Source: Methanothermobacter tenebrarum
GTDB taxonomy: Archaea > Methanobacteriota > Methanobacteria > Methanobacteriales > DSM-23052
DNA length: 56,221 nt
Direction of reading: 5' to 3'
NCBI RefSeq assembly: GCF_003264935.1
Contig: NZ_QLOE01000009.1
Location: forward strand, 1 to 56,221
Positions 10,482-43,700 of the stretch are shown piece after piece. A program made the position numbers and the translations under genes. The notes beneath the pieces were generated by a model. The model was not told where the DNA came from. It ran no database searches and worked only from the letters and a program-made list of their open reading frames with translations. Position 1 is the first letter of the stretch. Each line of letters starts with the position of its first letter.

Positions 10482-11405
10482 TCATGTTTTGCAGAGTATA
10501 ACATTGCATTGTAGTGGGATTTTTTTGTCTTTTATTTGTAGATTTTCATCTTCTATAACGACGATGTCGCCCACTTTGACTTCTCCAGGTCCTTCTTTTA
10601 GCATTAGCACGTTTTCTCCGGGTTTAGCGACTTTCTTCCATTTTATGTTGAAGGCTTGTACATTGGGGGCTAATTTTACTTCGATTTTATCATTGTCTAT
10701 GTTTATGACTCTTCCGATTTCTCCTTCTTTTATTATCTTTGATGCCATTTTTATCTGTTCACTCTTTTTTAGGAGTTCTTTTTGTAGTTTGGCTCTCCAT
10801 TTTTGGAGTGTTTTCACGTCCCTTAGAATGGTTTCTCTGAGTATTCTGTGGGCTTTCCTTTTATCTAATCTTGGAGTTTTTATGTACAAGTCGTATTCTG
10901 GGCTTATGGTTGGTGTTTTGGCGGCGACTTCTTCTACTATTTTCGCTAGGAGTTTTGAAACTTCTTTTAGGCTTGTTTTTTTCTTCCAATACTTTTTTAA
11001 TAGGCTGCTGGCAAGTTTTTTGGTTATCTTATTCCCGAATATTACAATGGAGCTTTCACCCTTCTCAAATTTGGTTATATTAGATCCTATGAGTTCTATG
11101 ATCTGATAGGCTCCTGTGGTGGCGTATATTCTCCTCCTCTTAGCCTCGAAGGGCGTTTTAAGGCTTACTTCACCCACTACAACGTCTCCGATGCTTCGAA
11201 CCTTCCTTGCATCATCTCTTATATTTAATCTTATACCAAATTCCTCGGCCCTATCCCTTAATTCTTCCTCTGTTTTAATATCACCATTATATAATTCCCT
11301 TTCGAGTTCCCTTCTCTTCTGGGGACTCCCTAAGTAGGCTATCTTTCTCTTATCACCTATCATTACGCAACCTTTGCTACTAGTATAAGTTATTATAAGG
11401 CTCAT
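10482..11405 (-). CDS. DUF2121-family archaeal protein (Ntn-hydrolase/proteasome-like N-terminus)
   Basis: 307 aa. The start 'MSLIITYTSSKGCVMIGDKRK' resembles the first strands of proteasome-beta-like Ntn hydrolases, here with Thr/Ser/Ser in the nucleophile region. The middle is helical and rich in Lys and Glu (about residues 170-225). The last 80 residues form a beta-rich domain ('GRVINIDNDKIEVKLAP', 'KVGDIVVIED') like a small barrel. I recognise it as the archaeal family of unknown function DUF2121; no reaction is established. The start is supported by AGGTGA seven bases upstream. It lies upstream of the MBL-fold gene on the same strand. Confidence 0.65.
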   Translation of the reverse strand: MSLIITYTSSKGCVMIGDKRKIAYLGSPQKRRELERELYNGDIKTEEELRDRAEEFGIRLNIRDDARKVRSIGDVVVGEVSLKTPFEAKRRRIYATTGAYQIIELIGSNITKFEKGESSIVIFGNKITKKLASSLLKKYWKKKTSLKEVSKLLAKIVEEVAAKTPTISPEYDLYIKTPRLDKRKAHRILRETILRDVKTLQKWRAKLQKELLKKSEQIKMASKIIKEGEIGRVINIDNDKIEVKLAPNVQAFNIKWKKVAKPGENVLMLKEGPGEVKVGDIVVIEDENLQIKDKKIPLQCNVILCKT

Positions 11406-20093: not shown

Positions 20094-20741
20094 ATGGAAG
20101 ATGAAAAGGAGGGAATGCCCCTTATAGGGGATAAATTCCCGGAAATGGAAGTGCAAACAACACATGGGATGATGAAACTCCCAACAGAATACAAGGGAAA
20201 ATGGTTCATACTATTCAGCCACCCAGCAGATTTCACACCAGTCTGCACAACAGAATTTGTAGCATTCCAGAAAAGATACCCAAAATTCAGGGAACTAAAC
20301 TGTGAACTAATAGGATTAAGCGTAGACCAAGTATTCTCACACCTAAAATGGACAGAATGGATAAAAGAAAACCTAGAAGTAGAAATCGAATTTCCCATAA
20401 TCGCAGACACAGGAAAAGTAGCTGACACACTCGGCCTAATACACCCAGCAAGACCAACCAACACAGTAAGGGCAGTTTTCATCATAGACCCGGAGAGTAT
20501 AATAAGGGCCATACTCTATTATCCCCAGGAGCTTGGACGTAACATGGATGAGATACTCCGCATGATAAAAGGTTTCAGGACAATCGATAAAGAAGGCGTC
20601 GCCCTACCAGCTAACTGGCCCAATAACGAGATAGTTGACGATGGTGTTATCATACCACCGCCAACAGACGTGAAAACAGCAAAAGAAAGAAAGGGTAAGG
20701 AGAACTGTTATGATTGGTGGCTTTGCTACAAAAAAATCTAA
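20094..20741 (+). CDS. Peroxiredoxin (Prx6-type, archaeal AhpC-like)
   Basis: 215 aa. '[14 protein letters not shown]' holds the peroxidatic Cys in the PxxxTxxC motif. The long C-terminal arm with '[10 protein letters not shown]' is typical of archaeal Prx6-type enzymes. A further Cys pair occurs near the end ('[11 protein letters not shown]'), possible resolving residues. It reduces hydrogen peroxide and organic peroxides. Part of the fprA-ferritin-Prx-SOD run. Confidence 0.93.
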
Positions 20742-21363: not shown

Positions 21364-21444
21364 AGGACCTCTTATTTAATTTTTTTGGAAATGATGGGAA
21401 GTATATTAGGTGGGTTCCACAACAATTTTTTCAAGTTTATGTGA

Positions 21445-21484
21445 ATTATATACAAATATACTTTATTTTAATAAGTTTTATATG
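21445..21484 (+). promoter_or_regulatory. Promoter region of the corrinoid methyltransferase operon
   Basis: Two TATA-like elements precede the corrinoid protein gene: ATTATATAC near 21445-21453 and TTTATATG near 21476-21483. The first would give a leader of about 30 bases; the second would place the start only a few bases before the ATG at 21509. The 145-base gap after SOD is strongly AT-rich, supporting an independent transcription unit. Confidence 0.4.
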
Positions 21485-21508
21485 CATAGATAAAGAGAAG
21501 AGATTAAC

Positions 21509-22141
21509 ATGACAAGCGAAGATTTTATAAAAGCTCTTGTAGGGCTAGACGAGGAAAAAGCACTAGAACTTGCAAGAGAAAGGATTGAAAAAGGGGATGA
21601 TCCCCTCAAAATCCTAGAGGATATGAGAAAAGCGGCGGACAAGATAGGGAAAAAATTCGAGGACGGAGAATATTTTGTCTCGGATCTTATACTGACTGGA
21701 GAAATATTCAATGAGATCATGGAGATGCTTAAACCTCTAATCAAGAAAAAAAAGGTTAAAAGGAAAGGTAAAGTTGTTGCCGGTACTGTGGAAGGGGACA
21801 TCCACGACATAGGTAAAAATATAGTCATAGCTCTGCTAGAAGCTGAAGGCTTCGAAGTCATCGACATAGGAGTGGACCAACCACCCGAAGCCTTCATCGA
21901 AGCAATCAAGAAACACAAACCCGACATAGTCTCCCTAAGCGGCTTGCTCACAGAAGCGATAGAGTCAATGAAAAATACCATAGACGCGATAAAAGAGGCC
22001 GGATTAAGAGACAAGGTGAAAATAATAGTCGGTGGCGGGAGGACCAACGAAGAAGTGAAAGAATACACCGAAGCAGATGAATGGGCAGACGACGCCGCCA
22101 CAGGAGTGAAGAAGATGAAAAAATTAATAGGAGCGGATTAA
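21509..22141 (+). CDS. Corrinoid (methyl-carrier) protein, MtaC/MtbC/MtoC-like
   Basis: 210 aa. Residues ~1-85 form the helical methionine-synthase-type cap domain. Residues ~88-205 form the B12-binding Rossmann domain with the cobalt-ligating motif GDIHDIGKN (DxHxxG, His99), then 'SLSGLLTEAI' and 'VGGGRTNEE'. It carries a methyl group on cobalt between methyltransferases. First gene of a four-gene cluster, with a three-base gap to the URO-D-family methyltransferase. No RNA-type B12 element is seen upstream. Confidence 0.93.
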   Translation: MTSEDFIKALVGLDEEKALELARERIEKGDDPLKILEDMRKAADKIGKKFEDGEYFVSDLILTGEIFNEIMEMLKPLIKKKKVKRKGKVVAGTVEGDIHDIGKNIVIALLEAEGFEVIDIGVDQPPEAFIEAIKKHKPDIVSLSGLLTEAIESMKNTIDAIKEAGLRDKVKIIVGGGRTNEEVKEYTEADEWADDAATGVKKMKKLIGAD

Positions 22142-22144
22142 AAG

Positions 22145-23407
22145 ATGGACATGGAAGAATTAAGGAAAGAAAAACTGGAAAGACTAGAAAGTGCCCTGAC
22201 ATGTAAAGAACCTGACAGAGTCCCCATACTAGTATTCAATGACGTCTTCTGCGGAAAATATTCAGGATACACTGCCCAGGAAATCTATTTCGACTATGAA
22301 AAATGGAAAGACGCCACCCTAAACGTGGCCAAAAACTTCAACTTCGATTACATATTCACACTCAACGGACTCGAAGGAATGTTCCTATTCGCAAGCTTCA
22401 TCGAAAAAGCCCCAGAAGTCGCAGCCAACATGAGATTCGTGACAGGCCCATACCACCAAATACTAGAAGACACATATACAAGATGGCCAGGAATAGAACT
22501 CAAAGAAGATGTCCACCCACAATTCATTGGAAAAGAAATAATGAAAAAGGAGGAATATGACAAGTTCATAGAGGCGCCCATAAAATTTATGCATGAAGTA
22601 GCCTTGCCAAGGATCTGCAAAAACCTTGCCAATCCAGGCTCCATGGAATATAATACAACACTCACGAGATTGGGGGCGGAGGCTACCAATTATGGCAACG
22701 CCACACTACAACTTATAATGGAATTGAAAAATATAGGATATCCATTCTTCCCGATGGCCCATTCATATGCGCCACTCGATTTCCTAGGCGACTTTTTAAG
22801 GGACATAAAGAACGTCATACTCGACCTCTACAGAGACCCCGAGACAGTGAAAGGGGCTATTGAAGCCATAACATCCCACATGATCAAAACTGGGACGATC
22901 TCAGGGACCATCCCACCCGAAGTGAAAGAAATGTTCGGAACTGAAATAGTTTGGTGCTTCTATCCCCTACACCTCACCGAGTACCTCAAACCCGAACTTT
23001 ACAATGAATACTATTGGCCATCCCTCCTCAAGGTATTCAAAGAGACCATAAAAGCGGGGCTTTTACCATTCGTGCTCTTTGAGGGAAGCCACGACACCCA
23101 CCTCGAAACATTGCAGAGCATCCCAAAGCATAGCATAGCTGGAATGTTCGAAAAAACAGATCCTAGGAAGGTCAAGGAGGTCATAGGAGATAGAATGTGC
23201 ATCATGTATGGACCCCCAAACTCTCTCCTTATAGGCAGCACACCCGAAAAAGTCCATGATTGGACACGGGAACTCCTAGTTGACATGAAAGATGATGGGG
23301 GATTCATACTCTTCCCAGGAGTTGACGCTGCTGGAATAGCTAAAGATGCCAGGCCAGAGAATATAAAGGCCATGATAGATGCAGTGGAAAAATATGGAAA
23401 ATACTAG
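22145..23407 (+). CDS. URO-D-family corrinoid methyltransferase (candidate substrate demethylase)
   Basis: 420 aa, uroporphyrinogen-decarboxylase-like TIM barrel as in MtaA/MtbA/CmuA and O-demethylase methyltransferases. The MtaA zinc set (HxC plus a late Cys) is not visible: at the first site the sequence is 'LFEGSHDTHLE' (Glu313, His316, His319), and in the late 'GGFILFPGVD' block a Val replaces the usual Cys. 'PENIKAM' is the usual end block. This fits the branch that demethylates a substrate onto the corrinoid protein rather than the coenzyme-M-methylating branch. Substrate unknown; an aryl methyl ether is one possibility. RBS and 3-base spacing show co-expression with the corrinoid protein. 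Confidence 0.85.
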   Translation: MDMEELRKEKLERLESALTCKEPDRVPILVFNDVFCGKYSGYTAQEIYFDYEKWKDATLNVAKNFNFDYIFTLNGLEGMFLFASFIEKAPEVAANMRFVTGPYHQILEDTYTRWPGIELKEDVHPQFIGKEIMKKEEYDKFIEAPIKFMHEVALPRICKNLANPGSMEYNTTLTRLGAEATNYGNATLQLIMELKNIGYPFFPMAHSYAPLDFLGDFLRDIKNVILDLYRDPETVKGAIEAITSHMIKTGTISGTIPPEVKEMFGTEIVWCFYPLHLTEYLKPELYNEYYWPSLLKVFKETIKAGLLPFVLFEGSHDTHLETLQSIPKHSIAGMFEKTDPRKVKEVIGDRMCIMYGPPNSLLIGSTPEKVHDWTRELLVDMKDDGGFILFPGVDAAGIAKDARPENIKAMIDAVEKYGKY

Positions 23408-23429
23408 AGCAAGGGGGAGAATCTTCAAA

Positions 23430-24302
23430 ATGTTCAAATTTGGAGACCAGAAAACCTTGAAAGTAGGTGGCGTGGAAATTGGCGGCGAACCAGGGAAGAA
23501 GAGCACGGTCCTGATAGGATCCATATTCTATAGTGGACATAACATAGTTGAAGATGAAAGGCGCGGAGTCTTTGACAAGGAAGCCGCAGAGGACCTGATA
23601 AGGAAACAGGAAGAATTAAGTGATAAGAGTGGGAATCCTTGTTTAATCGATGTTATAGGGATGAGCGAGGAAGCCATTAAAAGGTACATCGATTTCGTGG
23701 CTGAAGCGACAGACACTCCATTCCTCATAGATTCCGCGGTGCCAAGTATAAAAATCGCGGCAATGAACTATGTTGAAGAAATTGGACTTGAAGATAAAGT
23801 TGTATATAATTCTATATCACCAGAGTCAAAGGACGAGGAGATAAAGGCACTGGCAGATAGTAAAATCGAGGCAGCGATCCCCCTTCTTTACACACCCAAC
23901 GTAACCAGCGCAAATGCAAGGATAGGCTCATTTAATAAGATATTACCAAGATTGGAGGAAGCAGGGATAACTAAGCCATTAATTGACACATTTGTAATGG
24001 ACGTGCCGAGTTTGCCGGCCGCGGCCAAAGCTGCCATAGAAATAAAAAAAGAATATGGACTACCATGTGGTTCAGCCGCGCATAATGCTATAGCAAGTTG
24101 GAAGGGACTAAAAAACATACTATGGAAAGAAGCCAAAAAGCCAGCAACATTAATAGCAGATATTATGCAGATAATCCTGGGTTCAGATTTCATCCTCTAC
24201 GGACCCATTGAGGACGCTGAACTCGTTTTCCCAGGCACATTCATCGTGGACACAGCATATCGATACTTTTCGAGGATGAAAGACGAGCTCATAAAATTAT
24301 AG
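23430..24302 (+). CDS. MtrH-family methyltransferase (methylcobamide:pterin)
   Basis: 290 aa. Similar to MtrH, the subunit of the methyl-H4MPT:CoM methyltransferase that handles the pterin methyl group: 'FKFGDQKTLKVGGVEIGGEPGKKSTVLIGSIFY' region at the N-terminus, 'PFLIDSAVPSIK', 'LPCGSAAHNAI' and a C-terminal 'DFILYGPIEDAELVFP'. As a stand-alone protein beside a corrinoid protein it likely moves the methyl group between cobalt and tetrahydromethanopterin. The upstream in-frame extension to 23379 overlaps the previous gene; ATG at 23430 with AAGGGGGAG is preferred. Confidence 0.88.
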   Translation: MFKFGDQKTLKVGGVEIGGEPGKKSTVLIGSIFYSGHNIVEDERRGVFDKEAAEDLIRKQEELSDKSGNPCLIDVIGMSEEAIKRYIDFVAEATDTPFLIDSAVPSIKIAAMNYVEEIGLEDKVVYNSISPESKDEEIKALADSKIEAAIPLLYTPNVTSANARIGSFNKILPRLEEAGITKPLIDTFVMDVPSLPAAAKAAIEIKKEYGLPCGSAAHNAIASWKGLKNILWKEAKKPATLIADIMQIILGSDFILYGPIEDAELVFPGTFIVDTAYRYFSRMKDELIKL

Positions 24303-24305
24303 AAA

Positions 24306-26075
24306 ATGACAGTCAAATTAACATTCGAACCACTGGGACGGGAAACAGAAACTCCCCCAAATTTTATTCTTGAAATAGCAAGGGATGCTAACATCACCAT
24401 CCGCTCTGATTGTGGCGGTAAAGGACTTTGCGGCAAATGTAAAATAATCATCACTAGTATAAATGGAAAAGTAAGTGAAGTTAACAAAATTGAAAGGGAA
24501 CATTTAACCTTAAATGAAATAGAAGAAGGTTACAGGCTCGCATGCCAAGCCAAGGCGATTAATGGGGAGATCACAGTCTTCATACCCCCAGAGAGTAGGA
24601 TAGAGACTAGAAAAGTCGCAGAGACCATACTCGAAACAGATGTCGAACTTAATCCCCCAATAAAAAAAATACATTTAAAACTAAAAAAGCCAACCTTAAA
24701 GGATGCGACACCAGATTTTGAAAGGTTAAAATCCCCACTTGGAAGAATTGAAACATCACTCAACATCCTGAAAAGGATCCCAAAATTTTTGAGAGACGCT
24801 AACTGGGATGTAACAGCCACCCTATCATATAATAGGTTGATAGAAATTGAAAAAGGGGACACAACAGACAGATCATATGGCCTAGCAGTAGATATTGGCT
24901 CCTCCAAGATAATATGCCGGTTAATCGATCTCGTGACTGGTGAAGAATTGGCTGAAGACTATTCTGAAAACCCCCAGGTAGCCTATGGAGAAGACATCAT
25001 ATCAAGGATAAGTTACGCATCAAAAAGTGATGAAAACTTGAGAAGATTGCAAAAAATGGTCATAGACGCGATAAATAAGATAGTGGACAAGCTTTGTGAA
25101 AAGACAGGGATAAAAGACCATGAAATCTACGAAGCAATGATCGTCGGCAATTCAGTAATGCACCACCTTTTCTTCGGCATATATCCAAGATATCTTGGAA
25201 GATCCCCCTTCGTCCCGGCTATAAAGGACATGATAAATTGTCAAGCAAGAGAACTTGGAATTAAAATAAACCCAGAAGGCCGCATTAACTCATTACCACT
25301 TATCGCAGGATTTATCGGTGCAGACGCGTTAGCAGACATCCTAGTCACGCAAATGCATGAAAAAGATGAAACAAACATGCTAATAGATATTGGGACGAAC
25401 ACAGAGATCCTCCTAGGAGATAAAGATAAGATCCTCGCCTGCTCCTCGCCGTCAGGCCCGGCATTTGAGGGTGCGCACATAAAACATGGGATGAAGGCCG
25501 TTAACGGGGCGATAGAGAAGATATGGTTCAGTAAAGGCGTGAAGTATGAGACAATAGGTAAAGAAAAGCCAAAGGGAATATGTGGAAGCGCCCTAATAGA
25601 CCTAGTAGCCGAACTTTATAGAAATGGCATAATTAACAAAAGAGGAAGATTCACAAAGGGAAAGCACGAGTTCATCATTGCAAACACAGATGAAAGAGGG
25701 ACAAAAGAGGATATAACAGTCAATGAAAAGGACATAGACAACCTCCTAGTCGCAAAGGGGGCTATAAGATCAGCATGGACTATTTTAATGAAAAAGCTAG
25801 GAATTGAAGAGGAAGAGATCTCAAAAGTGTATGTGGCCGGTTCATTCGGAAGATACATAGACGTTGAAAATGCTAAAATCATCGGACTCCTACCAGATAT
25901 ACCAACAGACCAAATAATATTCGCAGGAGACATAGCAATTGCAGGAGCATCCATAACACTGAAATCGATTCAAAAAAGGATAGAATCTCGTGAAATACCC
26001 AAATTAATAGATTATATCGAACTTTCAGCCGAAAAAGATTTCAATAGAATCTTTGCAAGGTCAATCCAATTATAG
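24306..26075 (+). CDS. RACo-type ATP-dependent reductive activator of the corrinoid protein
   Basis: 589 aa. The N-terminal plant-type [2Fe-2S] domain has Cys36, Cys42, Cys45 and Cys80 ('SDCGGKGLCGKCK', 'LAC'). A linker follows, then from about residue 195 an ASKHA ATPase (DUF4445): 'YGLAVDIGSSKI', 'NMLIDIGTNTEI', 'KVYVAGSFGRY', 'GDIAIAGA'. Such proteins reduce inactive Co(II) to Co(I) on the corrinoid protein, using ATP. Three-base gap to the MtrH-family gene, so it completes the cluster. It is followed by a 108-base gap. Confidence 0.93.
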   Translation: MTVKLTFEPLGRETETPPNFILEIARDANITIRSDCGGKGLCGKCKIIITSINGKVSEVNKIEREHLTLNEIEEGYRLACQAKAINGEITVFIPPESRIETRKVAETILETDVELNPPIKKIHLKLKKPTLKDATPDFERLKSPLGRIETSLNILKRIPKFLRDANWDVTATLSYNRLIEIEKGDTTDRSYGLAVDIGSSKIICRLIDLVTGEELAEDYSENPQVAYGEDIISRISYASKSDENLRRLQKMVIDAINKIVDKLCEKTGIKDHEIYEAMIVGNSVMHHLFFGIYPRYLGRSPFVPAIKDMINCQARELGIKINPEGRINSLPLIAGFIGADALADILVTQMHEKDETNMLIDIGTNTEILLGDKDKILACSSPSGPAFEGAHIKHGMKAVNGAIEKIWFSKGVKYETIGKEKPKGICGSALIDLVAELYRNGIINKRGRFTKGKHEFIIANTDERGTKEDITVNEKDIDNLLVAKGAIRSAWTILMKKLGIEEEEISKVYVAGSFGRYIDVENAKIIGLLPDIPTDQIIFAGDIAIAGASITLKSIQKRIESREIPKLIDYIELSAEKDFNRIFARSIQL

Positions 26076-26183
26076 GCTTCGCCTTAAACCCTCCCCCCAT
26101 CCTAGGCTAAATAAATATTTTTTAATAAAATGATTTTCTCATATCCATAAGGAGAAGATTCTAATAGGAAAGGGATAATCTAG

Positions 26184-42875: not shown

Positions 42876-43700
42876 CTAGAAGGGTGAAAAGACTCCGATG
42901 AAGACCAGCCAGGCTAGTATTGTTTTGGCTGTGAGACTGAGGATAATATAAACCTTCTCACCATATAGGTAATCTTTCCATTTACCAATGCTTTTGTATT
43001 GTAGTAGCATGTTCACAGAGAATGTGTTGAACATTATAAAGTAGATTAGTAGTGCAAGGTAAACGAATGCTGGTGGATTAGTCTCTGTTGATCCGAAGGC
43101 CGCGATAAAGTAGGCTGCTATGACAATCCATGGAGTGAAGCCTGCTATGCACCCGCATATATATGGTGACCAGTCAACCTTTTCCGTGTATTGGTTCAGT
43201 TTCTCCATTAGATAACCGAACATTATCATTGAAGCGTTTAAAACGAAGATCATTACAAGTGACCATAGTTCCCAGACTCCCACAAAGGTTGCGAGTATCA
43301 CTATCATGATTGAACTTGAAAGGGCATACTCGTACCAACGATAGGGATTCATACCCTTCTTAAGATATTTTTCATAATCCTTTGTTTTAAGAAATCCTAT
43401 GACGAAATGTGCAACTGCCGAGATAAGGAGGAAAGAGGCTAATATAACACCAAGATAGCCTATAGTGAACACGACTTGTGGTTCAGGTAAAACTTGAAAT
43501 GATGGTGGATTCAGTGAAATTATCTTGAACTTCAAAGAGAATGTGTATATATCACGTTCCCATGTTAAAAGAAACCCCAGAACAACCATTATGATTCCTT
43601 GGATAAAATGTAACGACCCGGCGATTATGTTCAACCTTCTAAGTCCTTCAAAACTTATAGGGGATCTTTCTATCGCCCTAATCCTTTCAATATTATCCAT
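42876..43700 (-). CDS. Heliorhodopsin (seven-helix retinal protein)
   Basis: 274 aa with seven hydrophobic helices. Diagnostic heliorhodopsin residues are in place: His31 in helix 1 ('AGSLHFIQG'), His98 in helix 2 ('ISAVAHFVIGF'), the counterion Glu124 in helix 3 ('RWYEYALSSS'), 'FGYLMEKLNQ' in helix 5 and Lys259 in helix 7 ('LSLTAKTILAW'), the retinal Schiff-base lysine. The extracytoplasmic loop between helices 1 and 2 is long, as in this family. Heliorhodopsins do not pump ions in known cases and are thought to be sensors or regulators. Divergent from the MnmC-like gene. Upstream sequence is AT-rich with TATA-like elements very near the ATG and a weak ribosome binding site. Confidence 0.9.
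   Translation of the reverse strand: MDNIERIRAIERSPISFEGLRRLNIIAGSLHFIQGIIMVVLGFLLTWERDIYTFSLKFKIISLNPPSFQVLPEPQVVFTIGYLGVILASFLLISAVAHFVIGFLKTKDYEKYLKKGMNPYRWYEYALSSSIMIVILATFVGVWELWSLVMIFVLNASMIMFGYLMEKLNQYTEKVDWSPYICGCIAGFTPWIVIAAYFIAAFGSTETNPPAFVYLALLIYFIMFNTFSVNMLLQYKSIGKWKDYLYGEKVYIILSLTAKTILAWLVFIGVFSPF

What the first reader, a model, noticed from the sequence alone, without database searches (positions are those of the whole stretch)
21509..26075. Complete corrinoid methyl-transfer system in a CO2-reducing methanogen
Corrinoid protein, URO-D-family methyltransferase, stand-alone MtrH-family methyltransferase and RACo activator are adjacent and in one direction with 3-22 base spacing. 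The layout matches O-demethylase-type (Mto/Odm) systems, which take a methyl group from a methylated compound to a pterin. In an organism otherwise built for H2/CO2 methanogenesis this would add a methylotrophic or methoxydotrophic input, entering at methyl-H4MPT rather than at coenzyme M.
Basis: partly seen in the sequence, partly recalled or inferred. Interest (0 to 1): 0.75.

Follow-up and report, generated by a model that had tools for sequence, protein, structure and literature searches.

The report
Methoxy-demethylating operon in hydrogenotrophic methanogen
A methanogen that lives on hydrogen and carbon dioxide carries a borrowed, intact four-gene set for stripping methyl groups, most likely from methoxylated aromatic compounds, onto its own methane pathway; the genes were already noted in print in 2021 and their use by this organism is still untested.

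Summary
In detail: C-B-A-D (corrinoid protein, URO-D-type methyltransferase, stand-alone MtrH, RACo activase) run in one direction with gaps of 3, 22 and 3 bases at 21509-26075. Trees and motifs file it as an archaeal Mto (methoxy O-demethylation) system. B falls in a 100/100-supported clade with A. fulgidus MtoB (55%); A falls inside an Archaeoglobi MtoA clade (99/99). B lacks the zinc HxC...C site of coenzyme-M methylases; grouping it with the chloromethane (Cdm) enzymes is rejected (AU p=0.004). The occurrence is not new: the genome is very probably Methanothermobacter tenebrarum, which Kurth et al. 2021 (PMC8630106) name as carrying these genes. Added here: a clean insertion between sod and a paaK-like gene; found in 1 of 152 held Methanobacteriota genomes; purifying selection against a second Methanothermobacter copy (dN/dS 0.05-0.16); decay in a congener that keeps only a frameshifted 3' stump of the activase gene; no CdhC, so the methyl cannot feed acetyl-CoA. 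Best mechanism: ArOCH3 -> Co-C -> H4MPT -> Mtr/Mcr -> CH4 with H2 as reductant. Substrate and in vivo use are untested; B's long stem leaves a substrate shift open.

The parts
21430..21483 (+). Conserved block upstream of C with TATA-like sequences: probable promoter/operator of the operon
   Evidence: Nearly unchanged between window and L038 while the rest of the sod-C spacer has diverged; decayed in G001. Function inferred.
21509..22141 (+). C: corrinoid (B12-binding) methyl carrier, MtoC-like, 210 aa
   Evidence: PF02607/PF02310, DxHxxG..SxL..GG, 67-70% to Archaeoglobi MtoC
22145..23407 (+). B: substrate-specific methyltransferase (MTI), MtoB-like URO-D family, 420 aa
   Evidence: PF01208; clade with A. 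fulgidus MtoB 100/100; no HxC zinc site; model pLDDT 94.5, URO-D fold
23430..24302 (+). A: methylcorrinoid:H4MPT methyltransferase, MtoA-like MtrH family, 290 aa
   Evidence: PF02007 E=1e-105; 70% to PDB 8z9u; inside Archaeoglobi MtoA clade 99/99
24306..26075 (+). D: RACo-type reductive activase of the corrinoid protein, MtoD-like, 589 aa
   Evidence: PF14574, PF17651, PF17650, PF00111; 2Fe-2S cysteines; 61% to Archaeoglobus sp. MtoD
21364..26183 (.). Segment between sod and the paaK-like gene that holds the operon; in two congeners this is a 113-124 bp spacer
   Evidence: L140 (G003) and L141 (G002); 3' remnant of D at the same place in G001

Best explanation
This is a horizontally acquired archaeal Mto (methoxy O-demethylation) operon. 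D uses ATP and a low-potential electron to reduce the cobalt of C to Co(I). B moves a methyl group from a methoxylated compound, most likely a small methoxy-aromatic, to C. A moves it from methyl-C to tetrahydromethanopterin (H4MPT). Methyl-H4MPT then passes through the host's Mtr (sodium-pumping) and Mcr steps to methane with H2 as reductant, so each methoxy group gives methane without the CO2-to-methyl reductions. Shown here: gene content, family placement, lack of the CoM-methylase zinc site, purifying selection, insertion and loss in a congener. Inferred from characterised Mto systems: the reactions, their order and the methyl acceptor. Inferred only from kinship: the aromatic substrate.
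For: B in a 23-row clade (100/100) with both A. fulgidus MtoB copies; A in the Archaeoglobi MtoA clade (99/99) apart from the genome's own MtrH; 25 MtoB-typical residues kept that Cdm enzymes lack, including H276, E313, H316, H319; same gene set C-B-(transporter)-A-D in Archaeoglobus. A. fulgidus grows on 2-methoxyphenol and induces this cluster; M. shengliensis MtoB, C and D were shown to demethylate methoxybenzoates, with good evidence for pterin transfer by MtoA. dN/dS 0.05-0.16.
Against: No growth or enzyme data for this organism were found. No transporter is in the operon, whereas Archaeoglobus has MFS genes. B branches outside all other MtoB-clade members on a long stem, and uniting it with Archaeoglobi is rejected (p=0.022), so its substrate may differ. 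A congener has lost the operon. M. shengliensis MtoB itself was not in my tree.
Confidence: 0.74

Rival explanations
1. Same chemistry and same acceptor, but B takes methyl from another donor (a methyl halide such as chloromethane, or a non-aromatic methyl ether or ester), as the Cdm system of Acetobacterium does with haloalkanes.
For: The best solved-structure hit of B is CdmB (34%); no transporter in the operon, which would fit a small diffusible substrate; long stem of B.
Against: B with the Cdm clade is rejected (AU p=0.0045); 25 MtoB-typical residues absent from Cdm are kept; other archaeal Mto loci also lack an internal transporter (L144, L146, L147).
Confidence: 0.14
2. The operon serves assimilation or detoxification (C1 units for biosynthesis, or removal of methoxy or methyl compounds) and not energy metabolism.
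For: The host is not autotrophic and lacks CdhC; the operon lies beside an oxygen-defence block (rubrerythrin, FprA, ferritin, peroxiredoxin, SOD); it is dispensable in congeners.
Against: Without CdhC the methyl cannot reach acetyl-CoA; methyl-H4MPT flows to methane by the host's main pathway; the operon has its own conserved upstream block.
Confidence: 0.1
3. B is a coenzyme-M methylase (MtaA/MtbA type), so the methyl enters at CoM.
For: Same URO-D superfamily; weak hits to PRK06252 and MtaA models far below their cut-offs; same fold as M. mazei MtaA 4ay7/4ay8.
Against: The HxC and distal Cys (APGC) zinc ligands are missing; B lies far outside the CoM-methylase clade; the operon has its own MtrH-type second methyltransferase.
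Confidence: 0.02

Closest known systems
Mto system of Archaeoglobus fulgidus (AF_0006-AF_0010) and Methermicoccus shengliensis (MtoA-D)
   Same: Same four parts; same order C-B-...-A-D as Archaeoglobus; C 67%, B 55%, A 64%, D 54% identical to A. fulgidus; no zinc site in B
   Different: No MFS transporter between B and A; B is sister to the whole MtoB clade and not inside Archaeoglobi; host is a hydrogenotrophic, CODH-less methanogen; function untested
Mto loci of hydrogenotrophic Methanomicrobiales (Methanolacinia petrolearia and others; L144, L146, L147, L048)
   Same: Same parts in a CO2-reducing methanogen, no transporter inside the operon; M. petrolearia is named with M. tenebrarum in PMC8630106
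   Different: Order A-D-C-B; A 54-56% and D 49-50% identical to the window
Cdm chloromethane system of Acetobacterium dehalogenans (PMC13222342; PDB 9rui)
   Same: URO-D methyltransferase plus corrinoid protein plus pterin methyltransferase; no zinc in B
   Different: 34% identity; separate clade (AU p=0.0045); its MTII is MtqA-like per PMC13222342
MtgA of Desulfitobacterium (PDB 6sj8)
   Same: MtrH-family methylcorrinoid:pterin methyltransferase
   Different: 38.5% identical to A; transfers to tetrahydrofolate in the glycine betaine system

Membership tests
Archaeal Mto system | Corrinoid protein, URO-D MTI, MtrH-type MTII and RACo activase encoded together | tested here: met
   gaps 3, 22, 3 bases
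Archaeal Mto system | MTI in the MtoB clade | tested here: met
   100/100 clade with A. fulgidus MtoB; M. shengliensis MtoB1/B2 were not available to the tree
Archaeal Mto system | MTII is an MtrH homologue distinct from the Mtr-complex MtrH | tested here: met
   39% to own MtrH; inside the Archaeoglobi MtoA clade 99/99
Archaeal Mto system | Corrinoid-binding motif in C; 2Fe-2S cysteines and RACo domains in D | tested here: met
Archaeal Mto system | MFS transporter beside the mto genes (common, not universal) | tested here: not met
   None between or next to the genes; also none inside L144, L146, L147, so I do not treat it as defining
Archaeal Mto system | O-demethylation of methoxy-aromatics and transfer to H4MPT; induction by them | not testable with these tools
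   needs culture and enzyme assays
Cdm (chloromethane) system | MTI in the CdmB clade | tested here: not met
   AU p=0.0045 against it
Coenzyme-M methylases (MtaA/MtbA) | HxC...C zinc site | tested here: not met
Coenzyme-M methylases (MtaA/MtbA) | Placement with MtaA/MtbA | tested here: not met
Bacterial Mtv/Odm/Vdm O-demethylases | MTI in the MtvB/OdmB/VdmB clades with a methyltransferase to tetrahydrofolate | not tested

The most novel reading that the evidence does not exclude
B was replaced or strongly remodelled around the time the operon entered Methanothermobacter, so the operon feeds a methyl donor other than the known methoxy-aromatics into methyl-H4MPT: an H2-dependent methyl reduction that keeps the Mtr sodium pump, in a methanogen without CODH/ACS.
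Probability: 0.15. Interest if true: 0.65.

Novelty: already known. Interest (0 to 1): 0.42.

Why it matters
If active, an organism counted as a pure CO2-reducing methanogen of deep gas and oil fields would also turn methoxy groups of buried organic matter into methane, entering at methyl-H4MPT and keeping the Mtr sodium pump. That bears on deep methane budgets and isotope signatures. M. tenebrarum is in culture, and an intact and a decayed copy exist in near relatives, so the question can be tested directly.

Tried and rejected
Rejected: CoM methylase (zinc site absent, far clade); Cdm chloromethane dehalogenase as family (AU test); fortuitous cluster (dN/dS and conserved order). Led nowhere: viral contigs (10 pattern matches, no relative); plasmids (one 22.6% hit in Sporomusa); sigma-70-type promoter/terminator scan, no clear excess over shuffles and the wrong promoter type for archaea; paper searches for PDB 8z9u and for growth tests of Methanothermobacter on methoxy compounds (none found). 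A first MtoA tree used a wrong ORF as the genome's own MtrH; it was redone with the right one. Foldseek's list did not show CdmB, so there was no structural comparison with it. Whether G002 and G003 never had the operon or lost it without a scar could not be decided from two flanking genes.

Full report
Observation. Four intact genes run in one direction between 21509 and 26075: corrinoid protein C (21509-22141), URO-D-family methyltransferase B (22145-23407), MtrH-family methyltransferase A (23430-24302) and RACo-type activase D (24306-26075). The corrinoid motif DxHxxG..SxL..GG and the 2Fe-2S cysteines are in place.

Organism. The window lies in a 1,467,867-base, 20-contig genome. It has no CdhC, and neither do the three congeners held. 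M. tenebrarum RMAS has a 1,472,762-bp chromosome, no acetyl-CoA decarbonylase/synthase genes, and needs yeast extract and peptone; a relative, Met2-1, is an obligate mixotroph. I take the genome to be M. tenebrarum or the same species (inference, about 0.9).

What family. B is 51-57% identical to homologues in Archaeoglobi, Jordarchaeum and Methanomicrobiales, and 34% to CdmB. In a careful tree of 49 proteins B sits in a clade of 23 (100/100) with both A. fulgidus MtoB copies; joining it to the Cdm clade costs 32 log units (AU p=0.0045). With CoM methylases added, these lie far outside, and their HxC...C zinc site is missing in B. B keeps 25 residues that are conserved in the MtoB clade and absent from Cdm, among them H276, E313, H316 and H319, and differs from the clade at only 9 conserved positions. 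The predicted structure is confident (pLDDT 94.5) and has the URO-D fold. H276 and E313-H319 follow barrel strands, at the place where the alignment puts the MtaA zinc ligand; that they form the active site is inference.

The partners agree. A lies within the Archaeoglobi MtoA clade (99/99), 70% identical to PDB 8z9u, with the genome's own MtrH outside at 39%. C groups with the same organisms. D is nearest to Archaeoglobus sp. at 61%, with weaker tree support.

How it came and how it fares. Only this genome among 152 held Methanobacteriota has B. In G002 and G003 sod and paaK adjoin with 124 and 113 bp between them, so here the operon is a clean insertion of about 4.7 kb. Contig L038, binned as a Bipolaricaulota bacterium, has the same order Prx-sod-C-B-A-D-paaK at 84-93% protein identity and is most probably a misbinned Methanothermobacter contig. 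Its paaK is 98.0% identical in DNA to that of congener G001, yet G001 keeps only the last part of mtoD, with stops and frameshifts, and a scrap of the upstream block. So the operon is kept under purifying selection in two lineages (dN/dS 0.05-0.16) and is being lost in another. A 54-bp block upstream of C is nearly unchanged between window and L038, which suggests a working promoter of its own.

Split history. A nests in Archaeoglobi, but B is sister to the whole MtoB clade, and forcing B together with Archaeoglobi is rejected (p=0.022). Either B came from another source or it diverged fast once; against L038 it is now the best conserved of the four. This is the one sign that the substrate may differ.

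Mechanism. By analogy with the purified M. shengliensis Mto proteins: D activates C to Co(I), B methylates C from the methoxy compound, A passes the methyl to H4MPT. Downstream, Mtr and Mcr are the host's own (MtrH seen; the rest is established knowledge). Entry at methyl-H4MPT needs fewer reducing steps per methane than CO2 and keeps the Mtr sodium pump. With no CdhC the methyl cannot build acetyl-CoA. From established knowledge of Mvh/Hdr bifurcation, reduced ferredoxin would then need another sink, so co-reduction of CO2 is likely; this is inference.

Known or new. Kurth et al. [quoted passage not shown] The occurrence is therefore published; no physiological test for this species was found in the held library.

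Noticed in passing
window 42876-43700 (-): Heliorhodopsin (PF18761, E=1e-93; closest solved chain 6is6), with the retinal-lysine region kept, in a methanogen from a dark gas field. A paper search for heliorhodopsin with Methanothermobacter found nothing.
   Followed up: partly
L142:100-690 (G001:C153): Decayed 3' stump of mtoD with stops and frameshifts between sod and paaK in a congener whose flanking DNA is 98% identical to the intact locus L038.
   Followed up: yes
L038 (JACIWM010000045.1): Contig filed under a Bipolaricaulota MAG but syntenic and about 93% identical to this Methanothermobacter window: probably misbinned.
   Followed up: partly
L145:2978-19631 (G720:C3): Five full MtoB genes plus a fragment, with several MtoC and two MFS-like transporter genes in a row in one genome of the same family as Methanolacinia: an expanded methyltransferase island.
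   Followed up: no
window 20094-20741 versus L141: The peroxiredoxin is almost identical to that of G002 (dS 0.11) while the nearby paaK is far diverged (dS 0.85): recent recombination at this oxygen-defence block.
   Followed up: no
L054, L056, L057: Tepidanaerobacter (Bacillota) homologues, 41-43% identical, fall among archaeal MtoB-like sequences: a bacterial-archaeal transfer.
   Followed up: no
window 10482-11405 (-): Connectase-like protein ligase (PF09894/PF25274).
   Followed up: no
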